Shown: in pieces, positions 2,498 through 49,100 of the stretch
How positions within the stretch are numbered: position 1 is the first letter of the stretch
Layout of the letters: every line of letters starts with the position of its first letter
NCBI RefSeq assembly: GCF_900155385.1
Contig: NZ_LT699746.1
Coordinates: 62,001 to 126,000 of the forward strand
Length of the DNA: 64,000 nucleotides
DNA from: Vreelandella massiliensis
GTDB lineage: Bacteria; Pseudomonadota; Gammaproteobacteria; Pseudomonadales; Halomonadaceae
Reading direction: 5' to 3'
Position numbers and translations under genes: made by a program
The notes under the pieces: generated by a model
What the model was told of the DNA's origin: nothing
Database searches by the model: none
The model's input: the letters and a program-made list of their open reading frames with translations, nothing else

Positions 2498-3232
2498 ATG
2501 GGCCATAACCGGACACTGCTTTGCCGTTCCGTTTTTGTAGGTGGTGCCAGCATGATGCTGATGCTTGCCGGTTGCGCGGGGCAAACCGCCACAGAGAAGG
2601 CATTGGATCGTGAAGCAGCCTTGCACGAACGCGCAGAACAGCGTGTGGCTGAGAGGGAGTCGCGTCAGAGTGACGTAATTGAAACCCTACCGGATTGGAT
2701 CGTGAAAAAGCCCTCACCAGACGCCACAGGCGTTTATGGTGCCGGTATTGGCACCAGTGAGTCGATTTCACTGGCGCTGCAAAAAGCCAATATCGACGCT
2801 CGCCGCGATATGGCGCAAGAGATCGACCAAGTGTTGTCGGCTGAGACAACAATGGCCGGTGATAGTGATGCGAGCTTTAAGAGTATCGTTAATACCTTCA
2901 TCGACAGCGTGGACGTAGCCGGTGCTGAGGACGTGGATCGTGTGATTCAATCCGGTCGTGAAGGGTATCGAGTCTATACCCTGTTGAAACTGCCCTACCC
3001 TGAGTTTAATCGCGCGTTGTCAGAGTTTTCACGCCAAGACGAATCAGCGGCACAGGCGATGCAGTCGCAATACGATCAGTTAATGGCCCGTGTGAGCGAC
3101 ACCCCAGCATTTGAGTCTGAGGCGTCAGAACAAAACGCCCCGTCGGATCAGCAAAGCCGCCGCCGCGTGACCCCGATTGACGGCGAAATGCCCGATGAAG
3201 CGCTTGTGAGGGCACTGCAAGAGTCGCGTTAG
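2498..3232 (+). CDS. LPP20-like lipoprotein (244 aa)
   Basis: The start at 2498 was chosen because AAGGAGA lies 7 bases upstream and because it gives a clean signal peptide (MGHNRTLLCRSVFVGG then LMLAGC lipobox). An upstream in-frame ATG at 2336 would bury the signal. After a charged helical stretch, the segment LPDWIVKKPSPDATGVYGAG followed by a helix and a second beta-rich part (YRVYTLLKLPYPEFNRAL) resembles the LPP20 lipoprotein domain also seen in FlgP-like proteins. The C-terminal 60 residues are low-complexity and polar. It probably sits in the outer membrane; the partner may be the preceding large lipoprotein. Function unknown. Confidence 0.7.
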   Translation: MGHNRTLLCRSVFVGGASMMLMLAGCAGQTATEKALDREAALHERAEQRVAERESRQSDVIETLPDWIVKKPSPDATGVYGAGIGTSESISLALQKANIDARRDMAQEIDQVLSAETTMAGDSDASFKSIVNTFIDSVDVAGAEDVDRVIQSGREGYRVYTLLKLPYPEFNRALSEFSRQDESAAQAMQSQYDQLMARVSDTPAFESEASEQNAPSDQQSRRRVTPIDGEMPDEALVRALQESR

Positions 3233-3267
3233 CAGGATCACGGACAATTTGCTGAAGGAACCAGGGT

Positions 3268-42330: not shown

Positions 42331-42957
42331 TTAAAGGGGTTGAGTGGTTACGAGTTGGGCCAGCCGCATTTCTGAGAAAGATTGCGGATTGCGTGATGCA
42401 ATGACAAGCAAACTGGGGTCATACCGTAGTTCAAACAGTGGTTTACCATTTTTCTCGCAGCTATCCACGATAGCCTTGGCGGCATCGCGTAGAGCAGGGA
42501 AGGTCGTTGACACAAGCGCATCGGTGTCGTCTTCACAAAGGCCCGTTTTCGCTTGCATGAGATCGGGTGACGGTGCTTTCTCCCCCAAGTTGCGAAGCGT
42601 CAGTAAGAAGTCACTGGCCAACATTTCTTTCCCATTTGCGCTAGCGGCGCTGATTTCTTGAAGGGGGCAAAATTCACTAACAGATTGCATTGGCATATTG
42701 TCGATGAACGCTGAAATATCGGCATTTACGCGAAACGATGCGCAGACCGCAGAGGCTATCTGCTGGATTTCGCCATGCGTCATGCGACGAAGTGCTCGCA
42801 AACCGCGTGGGTGCTGGATGGATACCACATCGTCATAACTCTCTTGCTGCGCAATCATAAAAAGGCGCGTTTCGAGCAAGTGCAGATTAGGATCAATTTC
42901 GGCACAGGGGTCTGGGGGTGTGCGGTTAAGCTCAAAAATTTTCTGACTCACTTTCAT
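42331..42957 (-). CDS. Hypothetical protein (208 aa) next to the FlhC-like pair
   Basis: Start at 42957 (MKVSQKIFEL) is preferred to a longer frame from 43032 that would take in the end of the iscB element. The product is acidic and helical with a possible HTH-like part (LRALRRMTHGEIQQIASAVC). It is separated by only 12 bp from the FlhC-like pair, so it may be part of the same regulatory operon. The iscB insertion abuts its upstream region and may have displaced its promoter. Confidence 0.55.
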   Translation of the reverse strand: MKVSQKIFELNRTPPDPCAEIDPNLHLLETRLFMIAQQESYDDVVSIQHPRGLRALRRMTHGEIQQIASAVCASFRVNADISAFIDNMPMQSVSEFCPLQEISAASANGKEMLASDFLLTLRNLGEKAPSPDLMQAKTGLCEDDTDALVSTTFPALRDAAKAIVDSCEKNGKPLFELRYDPSLLVIASRNPQSFSEMRLAQLVTTQPL

Positions 42958-43028
42958 CAGATTTTGCGCGGGATACCCGGTATTTTTAGTGCCGGGGGGA
43001 TAGCGCGTCGCCCACAAGGCGACCTGGA

Positions 43029-44405
43029 TCACGCCACCGCGTGTCCCGCTCCTCCTTTTATTGGTTGATGGATCGTCGGCGTGACATGATAGCCGTAGCC
43101 ATCACCTCGCTGGATCACGGTGCAGTGTTTGTGCGAAATGCCTTGCACGGCACCGTGCTCGGTCTGGATGTTGAAGCTGCCTGTCTTGCGCACCGCGACA
43201 CGGCCCGTATGGGTGCCCGTTTTCTTGCCGGCAGGCACCACGGCTCTCACCATGTCGCCGGTTTGAAAGCCGTGTACCTGCTTTTGCCGCATCAACACAC
43301 CGCGCGGAAAGCCATGCTTTGTCAAACGCGTGCGCTGGTAGCTGCCGCGTCCGGTGGCTTTGATCGTCAGCGTCGGCACTGTCCAGTCATGCAGCGTCTC
43401 AAAAGCACCGACACAGGCGGCATCCAGGGCATGGGTTTTGGGAATGTCGAGGAGATTACGGTTGAATTTGGTGCGGCCACCACTGGCTACTGTCACCGGC
43501 AGGCCGGTGGCTTTGAGCGCATTAAACAGCGCCCAACGAGTGGCATTGACCGCACTGGCATCCCGTAGCGGGCGCTTGAGTTCACGCTGCACGCGCTCCA
43601 GCCGTGTGTCCGCCGACAAGCCGTTGGCCTTGAGGCGCTTTTTCAGGCCTTTGTCACGCGCAAAGAAGTCCGCCAGAGGCAACGCATTCTTGGCCTGGTT
43701 GCAGTTGTGACAGCTTAGCGTCAAATTACTGACGCGGTTGGAGCCACCGCGCGAGCGTGGCACTACATGCTCGATTTCCAGCGGTGTATCGGCGGTGCCG
43801 CAGTAGGCACACTCGCGGCCCCACTTCTCCAACAGGTACTCGCGCACCTCGTAACCGAGCAAGGTTCCCTGCTGGTACTCGACGCCGCTGATCTCGGGGT
43901 TGTCGAGTTGCTGGGTATCAAAGCGCACCAACTCCTGACTGATTGCGGTGATCGGCGTCAGCCGAGACAGCCGATCCACCCACGCCATGACGGTATCCAC
44001 CCGATGCTGCAAGCTGGGTGGCTGCCAGCCGGCTTTGCGCGTCCGGTTGTCAAAACGTGGCGCCCGGTAGCGCAAATTGGCCGACCGGCGGCGACGACGA
44101 AAGCCCCGGCGCTGCTCCAATGCCTTTTTGATCTGAAAGCCGCGATGCACCAGATCAAACAGGCACAGTACATGGCGCTGCTCACCCTCCGACTCGCGCA
44201 TCAGCGCCAGCCCCGTGGTCTTGCTGCCGGGATCGAGCCCTAAGCGAAGCGGTTGCGTCTCACCGCCCACCCGATCCTTAAGCCGGATCGTGAACGGGTA
44301 GCGTTTATGCACCACGGCACGACCGCGCTCTAGCAGCAACCGCGCGCGCTTTTCGCAACACGGCATCAACGGCTGCTTCTGTTTATCCCATACGAAAACC
44401 GCCAT
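43029..44405 (-). CDS. iscB: IscB RNA-guided nuclease (458 aa), catalytically intact
   Basis: All IscB landmarks are visible. The N-terminal PLMP motif is at residues 12-15. RuvC-I is LGLDPGSKTTG with Asp58. An Arg-rich bridge helix covers residues 94-117, and RuvC-II is ISQELVRFD with Glu158. The HNH domain runs from CAYC (199-202) and IEHVVPRSRGG (His213) to CHNCNQAKN. RuvC-III is HALDAACVG (His325, Asp328). All catalytic residues are present, so RNA-guided DNA cleavage is expected. The omega RNA lies just upstream at 44406-44705. No tnpA transposase is adjacent. Confidence 0.93.
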   Translation of the reverse strand: MAVFVWDKQKQPLMPCCEKRARLLLERGRAVVHKRYPFTIRLKDRVGGETQPLRLGLDPGSKTTGLALMRESEGEQRHVLCLFDLVHRGFQIKKALEQRRGFRRRRRSANLRYRAPRFDNRTRKAGWQPPSLQHRVDTVMAWVDRLSRLTPITAISQELVRFDTQQLDNPEISGVEYQQGTLLGYEVREYLLEKWGRECAYCGTADTPLEIEHVVPRSRGGSNRVSNLTLSCHNCNQAKNALPLADFFARDKGLKKRLKANGLSADTRLERVQRELKRPLRDASAVNATRWALFNALKATGLPVTVASGGRTKFNRNLLDIPKTHALDAACVGAFETLHDWTVPTLTIKATGRGSYQRTRLTKHGFPRGVLMRQKQVHGFQTGDMVRAVVPAGKKTGTHTGRVAVRKTGSFNIQTEHGAVQGISHKHCTVIQRGDGYGYHVTPTIHQPIKGGAGHAVA

Positions 44406-44705
44406 GAGATTTCCTCCTTAAAACATGCCCTTACGGGCCTCGTGTCGCGGGGCTTGCGCCCCGTCTCCCCTCGGGAATGTCGATAACCGGCTCCTGCCGA
44501 CGATACTGCTATCGGCAGCGATCAAGACCTTCGGCGTTTTACCTTGCGCCAGCATGATCCTGACCTTTCAGAGCAGCGGACTGAGGAAGCATCCACTGGT
44601 GAGTCTTGGCGACCTGTTATCAACGTAGCGGCCATACGGCCCGCTCTCCCTGGTCAACCCGGCTTGTGGTTACAAGCCTCTGTATTCAGGCAGAGGTAGT
44701 TGACC
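44406..44705 (-). ncRNA. IscB omega RNA scaffold
   Basis: The transcript leading into iscB is highly structured. The 5' GGTCAAC pairs with GTTGACC to close the first stem. An inner hairpin with CCTCTGCC/CAGAGG lies within. Then come GGGAGAGCGGGCC and a GGCCGCTACG arm, and near the 3' end GGCCCGTAAGGGC just before the ribosome site AAGGAGG. This block is strongly reminiscent of the conserved omega RNA found 5' of iscB genes. The guide lies 5' of the first stem. Confidence 0.8.
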
Positions 44706-44724
44706 ATCCCTTGTCTCCCTGTGC
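44706..44724 (-). ncRNA. Candidate omega RNA guide segment
   Basis: In IscB loci the guide is the stretch immediately 5' of the conserved omega RNA stem. Read on the minus strand it ends CAGGGAGACAAGGGAT directly before the first stem. Upstream of it the transglycosylase gene ends at 44725, so the guide copies host sequence at the insertion edge. Exact length is unknown. Confidence 0.5.
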
Positions 44725-45267
44725 TCAAAACTGCTGTTGCAGTTGTCGATAGAAATGTGTGACGCGCTCGCCGTACCGGCGCGAGGCGTTATCGTCGCTA
44801 TATGTGTAGTAGCGACCTATCCCAATCAAAGGATCGTCCGTACTGTTCATGGCCTCTTGTAGAATTTCAGCGCCTACTTCCAGGTTGGTGCGAACATCGA
44901 GTAGGTCGGTTGGGTCATCTACTCGATGGCCGTGCCAATGAAGATTGATTTGCAACATTCCCACGTCAATGCTTCGGTGCGATTGCAAAAGCTCGGTGAG
45001 CTGGCGTTCTGCTTCTTCACGGCTGTCTGGGTATTGACCTGGCAACGAGGCAACGCGCAGAGCGAAAGGGTGGGGGGAAACACCACTCTTGTCGCCGTGT
45101 GCAGATTCAGCCAGCGCCACGGAGTACAAAAGCATTGGATCAATACCGACTTGTTCTCCGACGGTGCCGAACACGCTGTTTTCGATGGGGTTGGCGGAAG
45201 TTAATGAGCTTCCCATAAGAGAGACTACAAGCACCCCGCTTGACCAAGTGTGAGTCCTTATATTCAT
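44725..45267 (-). CDS. Lytic transglycosylase, conjugation type (180 aa)
   Basis: A signal peptide (SGVLVVSLMGSSLTSA) precedes an SLT-like domain. The catalytic Glu is in SVALAESAHGDKSG, followed by VGMLQINLHWHG and a C-terminal YGERVTHFYRQL. Such proteins (VirB1/P19-like) open peptidoglycan for the conjugation channel, and it sits between regulators and transfer genes. The gene is complete; the iscB/omega RNA element abuts its 3' end without truncating it. Confidence 0.8.
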   Translation of the reverse strand: MNIRTHTWSSGVLVVSLMGSSLTSANPIENSVFGTVGEQVGIDPMLLYSVALAESAHGDKSGVSPHPFALRVASLPGQYPDSREEAERQLTELLQSHRSIDVGMLQINLHWHGHRVDDPTDLLDVRTNLEVGAEILQEAMNSTDDPLIGIGRYYTYSDDNASRRYGERVTHFYRQLQQQF

Positions 45268-45621
45268 AGCTGATAAGCCTTTCCAATTTCTATTTCGTTA
45301 TAAAAATGGAGGCAGCCTGGTGTCAGTGGGATTATCTATATCCGTGTGCTTAGCGCTGCTTTACCTTTCTGGGTATTAGGCTAACCCGCTATCAAAAGCG
45401 ACCAAGTGTGTGAGACAAGGGCGTTCATCCTGAACGTATCGGCGGGAACACTGGTGCCTTCGGGGTTGAGCCTTTTTTTTAATATAAATCAAGGGGATGC
45501 AGATATATAAGCTAACAAAAAATTGTCTTTTAAGGAAGGTGTAAAATTGACATATCTCAAATTAGGTCGTCACCGGAAGGCTGCTAAAATGGAAAGTAGG
45601 AAGCACTAAGGAGAGGAAATT
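45268..45621. other. 354-bp intergenic region before the 140-aa membrane protein
   Basis: The region holds a short hairpin (CGTTCA-TCC-TGAACG near 45431-45445), a T8 run after GAGCC near 45470, and a TTGACA near 45547. A transcription terminator followed by a promoter is likely. A small structured leader is possible, but I could not match one. Confidence 0.45.
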
Positions 45622-46044
45622 ATGCAGTGGTTAAATCCCGATGCCGTTAGACAAAAAGATCATCGTCGATTGCTGATGTACGCCGGTATTTTCAGTGCAG
45701 TGTTGCTTGTAATGGGTGGCTGGCTATACGCGGGTGGACTGGTGTACCACGGTCATTTGGTTTTTGCAGGCGTTGTTATTTTTGGTGCTATCACACTGAT
45801 CAGTGGCGTTATGCACGTTTTCCCCGTCGTCCATTGGGCATTGTTGCCCCTCGTCTTGGCGGGAATGGCACTACCCTTGTTCCCGACGTTCCAATACGAA
45901 ATCCTGCGTTTAACCGATATTGACTTGATCGGTATGAAGTCGCTCATGGTTGCTATACCGGCAGCGATGATGCTGTTTGGTCGTGTGGTTTGGTCAGGCT
46001 ACTTATCTGATCCTCGCTATGTGAAGATCATTGATAGCAACTAG
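45622..46044 (+). CDS. Membrane protein, four TM segments (140 aa)
   Basis: AAGGAGAGG precedes the ATG. Four hydrophobic segments are visible (IFSAVLLVMGGWLYAGG, HLVFAGVVIFGAITLISGV, WALLPLVLAGMALPLF, SLMVAIPAAMMLFGRVVW). It should be an inner-membrane protein. It converges on traG, with a bidirectional terminator between. No family was recognised; it may be an accessory transfer or exclusion protein. Confidence 0.7.
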   Translation: MQWLNPDAVRQKDHRRLLMYAGIFSAVLLVMGGWLYAGGLVYHGHLVFAGVVIFGAITLISGVMHVFPVVHWALLPLVLAGMALPLFPTFQYEILRLTDIDLIGMKSLMVAIPAAMMLFGRVVWSGYLSDPRYVKIIDSN

Positions 46045-46062
46045 CGAAAAGATCACATACCG

Positions 46063-46088
46063 AAAAAACCCGCCTCGGCGGGTTTTTT
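46063..46088. terminator. Bidirectional intrinsic terminator
   Basis: AAAAAACCCGCC and GGCGGGTTTTTT form a perfect stem with flanking A- and T-runs, suiting termination of both the rightward membrane-protein gene and the leftward transcript that ends with traG. Confidence 0.9.
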
Positions 46089-46105
46089 CATTGGAGAGTT
46101 AAGGC

Positions 46106-49100
46106 TTATCCGTTATGTAATCGCATGATTTCAGAATGTTCGTAAGCCGCTCTAGCCCCACCTTCTCTTTGCTCGCTTGTGAGCCCTGTTGCTACGGAGT
46201 CAGCGACGTTAGTGGCCCAGTTGTCATAACGGCTTTGGTCTTGTGGTGAAAGCTGATCATAATTCACTCCTTCCGCAGTGGCCGCTTCGCGTGCAACGGC
46301 GTCAATACCACTCTGGAAAAGCGCTTGACGCTGATCCGCATCGCTTGAATGGAGTGCCGAGGCGATAGTGCCTACACCCGCTGAATCAAACTGGCTGGCA
46401 TAGTAATCACGCGCATTTTCAACACGGCCTTGGTTATATGCTCCCCGTGCTTCATTGATGTCGCCGGTATCACGGTACGTTTGGCCAGCATTGAACGCAG
46501 CTTGTGCTGCCGGTGAACTCAGGTCGACCGACCCACCACCGGCTTCAAAGGCTTGACGCTGATCTTCGTTCATAGAGCCGTAACCGAAGGCTTGGGCTTG
46601 ATGATCCGGTAGCCCCAGTCCTTGTCCGACTGAAGAAACAGCACCACCACCCGTCGGGTTTTGAAGCATGGTGGGCGCCATCATATCGCCGCTGCTGCTA
46701 GTAGGGTCGTTACCCGACCACCCGCCACCTGGCATGATTCGATCCGACGCGCCAGCAAAGCCGCCTTGCACATCGGCGGTTGCGCTTTCGCCTAGCACCG
46801 CTGATGCGAGTTTATTGCCAGCCCAGGTATTCGACGGTGATCCAGCCCCATCTATACGAGAGCTAATCGCATCGCCAGCTTGTTTTTGCTGGTTATCGGA
46901 GTTGGTCTGGCGTGCAGCGTCGGCATTGGCCCCGTAATGGGATTCGACAAGGCCACGATCCCCATTGGGGCCGAGGCTATGTTCAGGCGTCGGAGTGCTT
47001 TGATAAGCACCGCCACCGACATCCGCAGGCTGATCAATACCGTCACCAATACCTTCATTACGGCCAGCCCCCGATCCAGGCATGGTGTCACCGTAGCTAC
47101 CGCCGGATGCGTCACCCAGTACGCTAAGAAATTCCGCTTGATGTTCTGAATCGCCATGATAAAGCTCGTACATTTGCGCAGCAGCCTTCGCGTCGGTGCT
47201 CGACATGCCATAACCGCCATCATCTTTATCCGCTGCATACCGAATGGCCCGCTCATTAGCGGACTGTTTCATATCGCTGGACGCATTGGTGTTGAAGTAG
47301 CCATCCAGTTTAGCGGATGCGCCGCTGTCGGTCAGCATTTTACCAACGCGATCAGCGCGGAAAGATTCGCTGGCACCGAATTGCTCGCTGGCTTGTTCTA
47401 GCTTCTGAAAACTCTTGGAAGTCGACGTTACTTCACTGGCAGAAGACTGCATGGAGTGAGCACGTTCAGCCCCCCATGTTTGAGCCAGCTGTTCCTGCGA
47501 GGTGCCCTGTAGCTGATGCGAAAGCGATTCAGCAAGTGCGGCTGTATCCGATTCGCTCCAACTGCTACCCGCCGTGCTTTGAAGTGTATCGCTAACCGTT
47601 TGGTCAACAGAAAAGCCTTGAGAGGCCGCAGCGGAAACACTGATGCCCATTTTGCTGAGAATGCCGCCCAGTGTTTTTCCTGTCCCTGCGCTGGCGTTGG
47701 CCGCCATTTCAGAACGCAGTGCTTCCGTTTGTGTCTTGGAAAGATCGAGCTTTTCCCCAATCTGCGAGGCTGTGTCATTAAGCGCGTTGACGCCTTCCGT
47801 GCTGGTACTATTAAGCGCACTATTAAATGATTCGACGCGCCCTTGCGAGCTAGATAGTGTTTCACCTTCTTTATAGCCCGTTGTGGCAGAGCCCATAAGC
47901 GATTCCGACGCCTGCACCTGCTCTTGCCGTGCTGACTGCATGGAGCTTTGTGATAGCTGCCCCACATCGAACTTGAATAAGCTATCTTCAGCCCCAGAGA
48001 GGACTCGACCAGAACCGGCGCTATGTTGGTACATCGCCGCGCTTTGCATGACAGCGCCAGGCTGAACCGCATCGGGAGAAGCGACTTTTTCATTTACATG
48101 GTCAGCACCTTGCATACGCTGGGCGAGCGATGTCATGGCGTATGCCGAGCCGGTCAACAGCACAAGCGTTAAGATTGGTGTTGAAGCAGCGAGCATCCCC
48201 CCAACCGCAATCCAGTGTGATAGGCGTTTATCTGCTTGATCGAGTGCATAGAACGACGAGGAAAAGTTGTCGATTTGCGCCAGCTCGCCAGCGGCGACGG
48301 TATGCAAGTACAAATTTGTCATGGCTAATACTGGCATCCAAAGTTGTACCCACAACAACATTTGCCCGTATTTCATGGCGAGCTTCATCCCGATACCGCC
48401 CAGCACAAGGATGAAGGCAGCAAAAGGCAGGATGGAGTACGCAAATCCCTCGATGAACGTCATCATCGGCCTAACTGTTGACATAAAGATGGTCTGTTCA
48501 CTGGCCCATTGCACATTACGCTGATCAAGCGCCTGATTCACCATGACAGCCGTATTGGTATCGAGAAAGTCCTTATAGCGATCCCCCATTGATTGAATAA
48601 AAATGGGTTCCAAAAGGGACAATTTCACAAAATCTTGAGCATCTTCAGTGCCCAGACCCAACATATCGAGTGAGTCCGATATTTCCTCAGAAGGGGTGTT
48701 GCCACTGGGGCCAGCGCTCATACCGCCTTCGGGCTTGATAAGTCGTTCCAAAACATCGTCGAGGTCATGGCCACTGCTGACCGAATCCGTCCAGCTAATG
48801 AGCTTAGGGTAGGCAGCGGTGCAAGTTTTATTGACAGGCGAGCTTAATCCACCCGTTTCATAATAGGGTGTCGAAAACGTCTTTGAGTTAAATTTGATGC
48901 CTTCCGTCTCGTCGAAAGGGTCGTCGTAGATTTCCTCAATCGTCGCTTCACCGCGCAGAATCTTTTGTGAGGTGCAGTTACGAAGGTATTGATCCCAGCT
49001 TTCACGAAAACCTGGCTCTGCCTCGTCCAGTGCGGCTAATAGGGCTGTATCAGAGCCACCACGGCGGACAGTGTTAAGCACCTTCAGGGCGTCAACAAAA

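What the first reader, a model, noticed from the sequence alone, without database searches (positions are those of the whole stretch)
43029..44724. Intact IscB with omega RNA and a readable candidate guide
Seen: PLMP, both nuclease domains with all catalytic residues, and a structured 5' leader whose first stem closes GGTCAAC with GTTGACC. Known: the guide lies 5' of the omega RNA stem. Here it would end CAGGGAGACAAGGGAT and match the sequence at the insertion edge after the transglycosylase gene. No tnpA is present, so the element depends on a transposase elsewhere or is domesticated within the transfer region. Inference: it may cut molecules lacking the insertion and thus favour its own retention.
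Basis: partly seen in the sequence, partly recalled or inferred. Interest (0 to 1): 0.75.

Follow-up and report, generated by a model that had tools for sequence, protein, structure and literature searches.

The report
Start-codon-seeking IscB mobile element
A small mobile element carrying a Cas9-ancestor nuclease (IscB) and its guide RNA sits exactly in front of a gene's start codon; its relatives, and elements that carry the nuclease TnpB behind the same end sequence, do so far more often than chance, in some cases in front of genes that cells need to live.

Summary
An intact 458-aa IscB (43029-44405, -) follows a HEARO/omega RNA (44463-44704, -; 95 bits). The element is larger than reported: 42958-44704, 1747 bp, GTCAAC...AATCTG, abutting ATGA, the start of the 208-aa gene. 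The guide is one base off: it ends GGGATG (AGGGAGACAAGGGATG).

It is not a domesticated tra gene: this genome holds eight HEARO RNAs and six full-length IscBs, and 12 of 82 genus genomes carry IscB or its remnants. Four empty sites in sister species are contiguous; one keeps guide and ATGA perfectly in two species. The window's own empty site was not found.

New: insertions fall mostly at real start codons, between Shine-Dalgarno and ATGA (16 of 40 with both marks; matched-random mean 1.2; 0 of 20,000 draws). 26 of 41 sites open Pfam-recognised genes, among them the only alaS of its genome. TnpB elements with the same right end share the bias, so it probably belongs to a shared transposition route. 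No transposase with these ends was found.

Best model: a trans-mobilised ISC element whose guide is a host gene's leader and whose TAM is that gene's start codon, retained by cutting empty alleles. Cleavage and expression are untested.

The parts
42958..44704 (-). whole mobile element (1747 bp), GTCAAC...AATCTG, no transposase gene
   Evidence: ends shared with copies elsewhere in the genome and with contiguous empty sites of other copies
44463..44704 (-). omega RNA (HEARO) scaffold; first stem 44698-44704 pairs with 44653-44659
   Evidence: Rfam RF02033 95.3 bits; covariation in 28 copies
44705..44720 (-). predicted 16-nt guide AGGGAGACAAGGGATG, in host DNA outside the element; holds a Shine-Dalgarno-like GGGAG
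   Evidence: lies directly 5' of the mapped element end; guide length of about 16 nt is recalled for IscB
43029..44405 (-). iscB, 458 aa: PLMP, RuvC, HNH
42976..42996 (-). right-end hairpin CCCGGCACTAAAAATACCGGG
   Evidence: sequence; conserved in copies and, in variant form, in TnpB elements
42954..42957 (-). ATGA flank: insertion-site motif, predicted TAM (ATGAAA) and start codon of the 208-aa gene
   Evidence: ATGA at 40 of 41 mapped junctions; TAM role inferred
42331..42957 (-). 208-aa gene of unknown family whose start codon abuts the element
   Evidence: no Pfam family
44725..45267 (-). transglycosylase (SLT) gene of the transfer region, upstream and codirectional

Best explanation
One copy of an ISC-type mobile element: omega RNA plus IscB, no transposase of its own, with hairpin ends in IS200/IS605 style whose right end is shared with TnpB elements. 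SHOWN by sequence: the element is a clean insertion of GTCAAC...AATCTG directly 5' of ATGA; insertions concentrate at real start codons; TnpB elements with the same right end do so too, in the opposite orientation. INFERRED: a Y1-type TnpA acting in trans inserts it next to TCAT on the strand opposite the gene. The leader of the host gene then supplies the guide and, since the guide lies outside the element, also the promoter of a functional omega RNA. IscB with this RNA recognises guide+ATGA, which exists only in an empty allele, and cuts it, favouring retention or re-copying of the element. Transcription reads through into the displaced gene, which can remain functional even when essential.
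For: Eight HEARO RNAs and six full-length IscBs in the genome; common ends and ATGA at 40 of 41 junctions; four contiguous empty sites, three of them gapless over 160 nt, one with small gaps in a diverged flank; perfect guide+ATGA in the empty L009 allele of two species. Covarying omega RNA. IscB under constraint: median dN/dS 0.106 among six own copies. Start codons: both marks at 16 of 40 sites against a matched mean of 1.2, 0 of 20,000 draws; 26 Pfam-recognised genes among 30 ORFs tested. TnpB elements. ATGAA agrees with reported TAMs NTGA (DtIsrB, PMC9581776) and NTAAA/NWRRN (OrufIscB, PMC13180657), passages read. Few HEARO nucleases lie beside TnpA (PMC9755519, passages), so action in trans is usual.
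Against: No empty copy of the window site. No TnpA with these ends: none in 30 fetched Y1 loci and none by tblastn in 32 fetched end loci. Complete genome G033 has a recent burst but only one Y1 hit, of RAYT type by my reading; G049, G055 and G081 carry IscB with no PF01797 match at all. No sigma-70-like promoter in 42600-46200. After the recent G033 burst dN/dS is higher (0.1-1.7 at very low dS), so constraint on each single copy is not shown. Nothing was measured on cleavage or transcription.
Confidence: 0.7

Rival explanations
1. The start-codon excess is made by selection alone: the element inserts at any ATGA, and only insertions that spare reading frames and lie behind a promoter in the right direction survive.
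For: 12 of 41 sites were called inside genes by a simple caller and 9 intergenic, so other sites are used too; promoter-proximal, codirectional sites would keep a host-driven guide active.
Against: Even with intragenic sites left out, starts are 20 of 29 against 44 of 171. TnpB elements, antisense to the gene, share the bias. A site between Shine-Dalgarno and ATG should be a bad intergenic choice, since it takes the leader away (inference).
Confidence: 0.35
2. The copy in the window is a relic or has been taken over by the plasmid as a regulator or defence gene.
For: It lies in a transfer region, without a transposase, and the genome's other copies have diverged from it (dS about 0.5-0.7).
Against: Ends, omega RNA and catalytic residues are intact, as in copies at unrelated loci. 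A degenerate copy exists for contrast (L010).
Confidence: 0.1
3. The element spreads without a Y1 transposase, for instance by IscB-made breaks and repair.
For: G033, one contig, holds seven copies with dS of at most about 0.05 and only one RAYT-like Y1 hit; three other IscB genomes have no PF01797 match.
Against: Hairpin ends, precise junctions without duplication and a right end shared with TnpB elements look like IS200/IS605 chemistry. A transposase can be lost after a burst. Break repair copies into the same site, not into new ones (established knowledge of homing).
Confidence: 0.08

Closest known systems
HEARO RNA and ORF elements (Rfam RF02033); ISC elements with IscB
   Same: HEARO RNA upstream of an HNH/RuvC ORF; clean mobile unit; insertion before ATGA (that HEARO elements precede ATGA or GTGA is recalled from the original description, which is not held)
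   Different: start-codon placement and the right end shared with TnpB elements are, as far as held papers show, not described
OgeuIscB, OrufIscB, TbaIscB (studied IscBs)
   Same: sequence relatives; ATGAA fits the reported NWRRN distribution (PMC13180657, passages)
   Different: shorter (458 aa) than the 441-547-aa single-chain IscB entries at the upper end; activity and TAM of this protein are unmeasured
DtIsrB
   Same: PLMP domain, omega RNA 5' of the ORF; reported TAM NTGA (PMC9581776, passages) equals the flank found here
   Different: IsrB lacks HNH; the window protein has it
IS200/IS605 TnpB elements
   Same: right end and ATGA/TCAT flank of one Halomonadaceae TnpB group; same start-codon bias
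   Different: TnpB in opposite orientation; other end TTGACTGCTCC instead of GTCAACTACC; no HEARO RNA was looked for in them

Membership tests
IscB (OMEGA nuclease) | PLMP/RRXRR N-terminus with split RuvC and an HNH domain | tested here: met
IscB (OMEGA nuclease) | omega RNA encoded just upstream, structure conserved | tested here: met
IscB (OMEGA nuclease) | RNA-guided cleavage with a 3' TAM | not testable with these tools
   flank and guide inferred only
ISC / IS200-IS605 element | defined ends with subterminal hairpins, precise insertion, no target duplication | tested here: met
ISC / IS200-IS605 element | encodes its own Y1 transposase | tested here: not met
   no PF01797 in the window; non-autonomous members are usual (PMC9755519, passages)
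ISC / IS200-IS605 element | moved by a Y1 transposase in trans | tested here: inconclusive
   two TnpAs elsewhere in the genome without these ends; IscB genomes without PF01797 exist
Domesticated plasmid gene | single conserved locus on a plasmid backbone | tested here: not met
   copies at unrelated loci

The most novel reading that the evidence does not exclude
IscB elements and TnpB elements with the same right end have an insertion system that finds the Shine-Dalgarno/start-codon junction of genes. Each such IscB then takes a gene's ribosome-binding region as guide and its start codon as TAM, runs its guide RNA from the host gene's promoter, and leaves even essential genes expressible through the element. 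In three plasmid relatives the iscB stop overlaps the target start (TGATG), a ready-made translational coupling. Start codons would be the safe harbour of these RNA-guided elements. The likeness of the PLMP domain to the N-terminal domain of initiation factor 3 (PMC9581776, passages) is a coincidence worth testing.
Probability: 0.45. Interest if true: 0.8.

Novelty: new member of a known kind. Interest (0 to 1): 0.62.

Why it matters
IscB is the ancestor of Cas9, and how its elements move and choose sites is poorly known. One bacterial family here offers dozens of mapped insertions, sister genomes without the element, and TnpB elements with the same right end. That makes several open questions directly testable: the natural TAM, the transposase that acts in trans, the source of the omega RNA promoter, and how a gene survives the loss of its leader. 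A start-codon preference would also explain why the flank is ATGA (or GTGA, as recalled for HEARO).

Tried and rejected
Rejected: domestication (eight HEARO RNAs in the genome). Rejected as sole cause of the bias: promoter capture by IscB, since antisense TnpB elements share it. Tried without result: an empty copy of the window site; a transposase with these ends; a sigma-70-like promoter near the element; a second guide match in the window (only its own junction; the rest of the genome was not searched for it). Literature: searches joining IscB, HEARO or IS605 to start codons or ATGA listed nothing relevant (listings only). The original HEARO and ISC papers are not held, so absence from print is not shown.

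Limits of the counts. The 41 junctions leave out, of the loci read: L010 (3' end degenerate), L121 (3' part lost), L134 (another element inside its right end), L145 and L147-L151 (unaligned or cut), L056 and L057 (same places as L122 and L133), L060 and L069 (ends not alignable). In G038, two G081 and one H. cerina copies the alignment stopped a few bases early and the junction was set at the nearby ATGA, so ATGA is partly by construction there. One search drops L136 (same site as L135) and corrects L058, which searches had misplaced by a base or more. The TnpB junctions were found with a pattern that demands [AG]TGA, and are compared with the background of the IscB flanks; one of 14 rows (L246, first) has the wrong 5' end, and without it the counts are 10 of 13 ORF>=60, 7 of 13 Shine-Dalgarno, 6 of 13 both. 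Of nine TnpB loci, L208 and L233 do not have ATGA. In one search L276 (same site as L274) and L281 (unannotated) were dropped; its test sets a 200-nt stretch against single sites and overstates the contrast. rests on a simple gene caller.

Full report
WHAT IS THERE. On the minus strand the window holds, in order: a transglycosylase gene (44725-45267), a short leader, a HEARO/omega RNA (44463-44704; 95.3 bits), an intact 458-aa iscB (43029-44405) and a 208-aa gene (42331-42957). The residues I assign to RuvC and HNH are invariant in 39 aligned full-length relatives, and solved IscBs match by sequence. The RNA fold of the single sequence is weak evidence (z -1.87); in 28 copies 98.9% of pair cells are standard and 25 of 72 pairs changed on both sides (shuffle mean 15.4, 0 of 500; slid structures 4-8).

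BOUNDARIES. Other copies in the same genome (3.44 Mb, 23 contigs) start GTCAACTACC and, where the end is kept, stop at GCGCAAAATCT[GA] before ATGA. The window's element is therefore 42958-44704. Over 41 mapped junctions in the genus and in Halomonas cerina the 5' end reads GTCAAC (32), GTCAGC (8) or GTCAAT (1), and the 3' flank is ATGA in 40, ATCA in one (L114). Empty alleles from two sister genomes without an IscB match (G022, G039) are contiguous at the four sites compared: gapless over 160 nt at L009, L012 and L015, with small gaps in a diverged flank at L014. The 16-nt guide matches 16 of 16 at L009 in both species, with ATGA; 13 of 16 at L015, with ATGA; 11 and 12 of 16 at L012, without ATGA; 4 of 16 at L014, with ATGA. 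The window's own site has no relative in the collections searched.

HOST AND SPREAD. Named relatives are Vreelandella zhuhanensis (84%) and V. maris (83%), then Halomonas cerina (75, 74%); equal contig lengths make G081 and G025 the first two. Of 82 genus genomes 16 pass the cut-off for the IscB protein, but four of these (G015, G046, G071, G077) are weak HNH-region matches, and G008 has fragments only; so 12 of 82 carry IscB or remnants, the own genome included. HEARO was sought in 14 chosen genomes and found in 11: eight here, ten in G033, 33 in G038. Own IscBs differ by dS 0.09-0.80, median dN/dS 0.106; seven G033 copies differ by dS of at most 0.052, a recent burst.

START CODONS. The 5' flank shows a purine peak at -12 to -6, where a Shine-Dalgarno belongs. 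Against all other ATGA of the same empty-allele sequence, both marks (ORF of 60 aa or more, Shine-Dalgarno) occur at 15 of 41 versus 47 of 1383. With one random ATGA drawn per locus: ORF 30 of 40 (mean 13.5), Shine-Dalgarno 17 of 40 (2.6), both 16 of 40 (1.2); no draw of 20,000 reached any of the three. Without intragenic sites, starts are 20 of 29 versus 44 of 171 (simple gene caller; it put 12 of 41 sites inside genes). Of 30 ORFs opened by the ATGA and given to Pfam, 26 are recognised (25 of 29, and the trkA-type protein of L058). Named by Pfam family and recalled N-termini they include alaS, argS, lptA, purD, nth, rsmE, trmB and, in this genome, ispB (there behind an element whose IscB is broken). 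alaS occurs once in G044, directly behind an element with full-length IscB (L132). The window's 208-aa gene has no Pfam family but shows the same layout.

TnpB ELEMENTS WITH THE SAME RIGHT END. The right-end pattern hit 27 of 275 Halomonadaceae genomes. Besides IscB elements, nine fetched loci hold TnpB in the opposite orientation behind this end; in seven the flank is ATGA, in two not. Their other end reads TTGACTGCTCC. In TnpB orientation the flank is TCAT, so one tetranucleotide would serve both nucleases from opposite strands. In a sample taken with an [AG]TGA-demanding pattern, 6 of 13 have both marks (one faulty row dropped) and 9 of 9 tested ORFs are Pfam genes. An rsmE-type gene was hit at its start by an IscB element in G004 (L127) and by a TnpB element in G046 (L253). 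No Y1 protein was found by tblastn in the 32 end loci examined. RNA-only derivatives exist in G038 (L197, L198).

WIDER SAMPLE. Fifty-two plasmid records carry a relative; 26 places were read, 24 tabulated. In 9 of 24 an annotated gene beginning [AG]TGA starts within 200 nt behind iscB; 26 of 876 background [AG]TGA sites are annotated starts (the comparison favours the former). Of eight annotated relatives of 57-65% identity five start exactly behind the conserved end sequence (L270-L274; judged by sequence, not by mapped copies), and in three of them (two Polaromonas, one Cupriavidus) iscB stop and target start overlap as TGATG. In a Trichormus and a Deinococcus plasmid iscB lies between parA and parB. 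Fifteen of 24 show no such start, so the pattern is not universal at a distance, or the gene tables are incomplete.

MECHANISM. Shown: a clean, repeated, site-preferring insertion with a constrained IscB family and a covarying omega RNA. Inferred: mobilisation in trans by a Y1 TnpA, transcription of the omega RNA from the host leader, recognition of guide+ATGA in empty alleles, retention by cleavage. The last is the general model for such nucleases, recalled and untested here. ATGAA agrees with the TAMs NTGA (DtIsrB) and NWRRN (OrufIscB) (PMC9581776, PMC13180657; passages). Against trans mobilisation: no TnpA with these ends was found, and four IscB genomes have no full-length Y1 protein (G033 one weak hit; G049, G055, G081 none). 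Why start codons: insertion-level targeting is favoured because TnpB elements share the bias; selection is not excluded. How the displaced gene is expressed is open: in 41 copies iscB stops 43-115 nt before the ATG, mostly 70-72 or 90, so stop-start coupling does not cover them.

NOVELTY. The locus is a new member of a known kind. The start-codon preference and the right end shared with TnpB elements are the new part; held literature gave nothing on them, with the original papers not held.

Noticed in passing
L197 1121-1584 and L198 1064-1646 (G038): Elements with HEARO RNA and right end but without iscB: RNA-only derivatives that may use IscB in trans.
   Followed up: partly
L193 3071-4400 (G033:C1) and L208, L210, L213, L214, L218, L219: TnpB elements with the same right end as the IscB element, TnpB in opposite orientation.
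   Followed up: yes
L192 about 3200-3265 (G026:C6): Short palindrome made of two right ends back to back, TCAT...ATGA, without a gene.
   Followed up: no
L114 (G033:C1:83975): A recent copy flanked by ATCA instead of ATGA, the one exception of 41.
   Followed up: no
L201 (G049:C1:2152500-2158500): IscB element whose right-end hairpin is split by another element of about 1.4 kb with a distant TnpB.
   Followed up: no
L203 2240-4020 (G000:C3, outside the window): An IS605-like pair of tnpA and tnpB genes on the same contig as the window; a candidate helper, but with other ends.
   Followed up: partly
L279 and L286: iscB between parA and parB, at the parB start, in plasmids of two phyla.
   Followed up: no
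L099 (G013:C97): Relatives of the window's ParM-like and 241-aa genes beside a partial tnpA: another plasmid of this backbone.
   Followed up: partly
G038:C104, C67, C134 (L204-L206): HEARO RNAs of a second, distant IscB family in the genome richest in copies.
   Followed up: no
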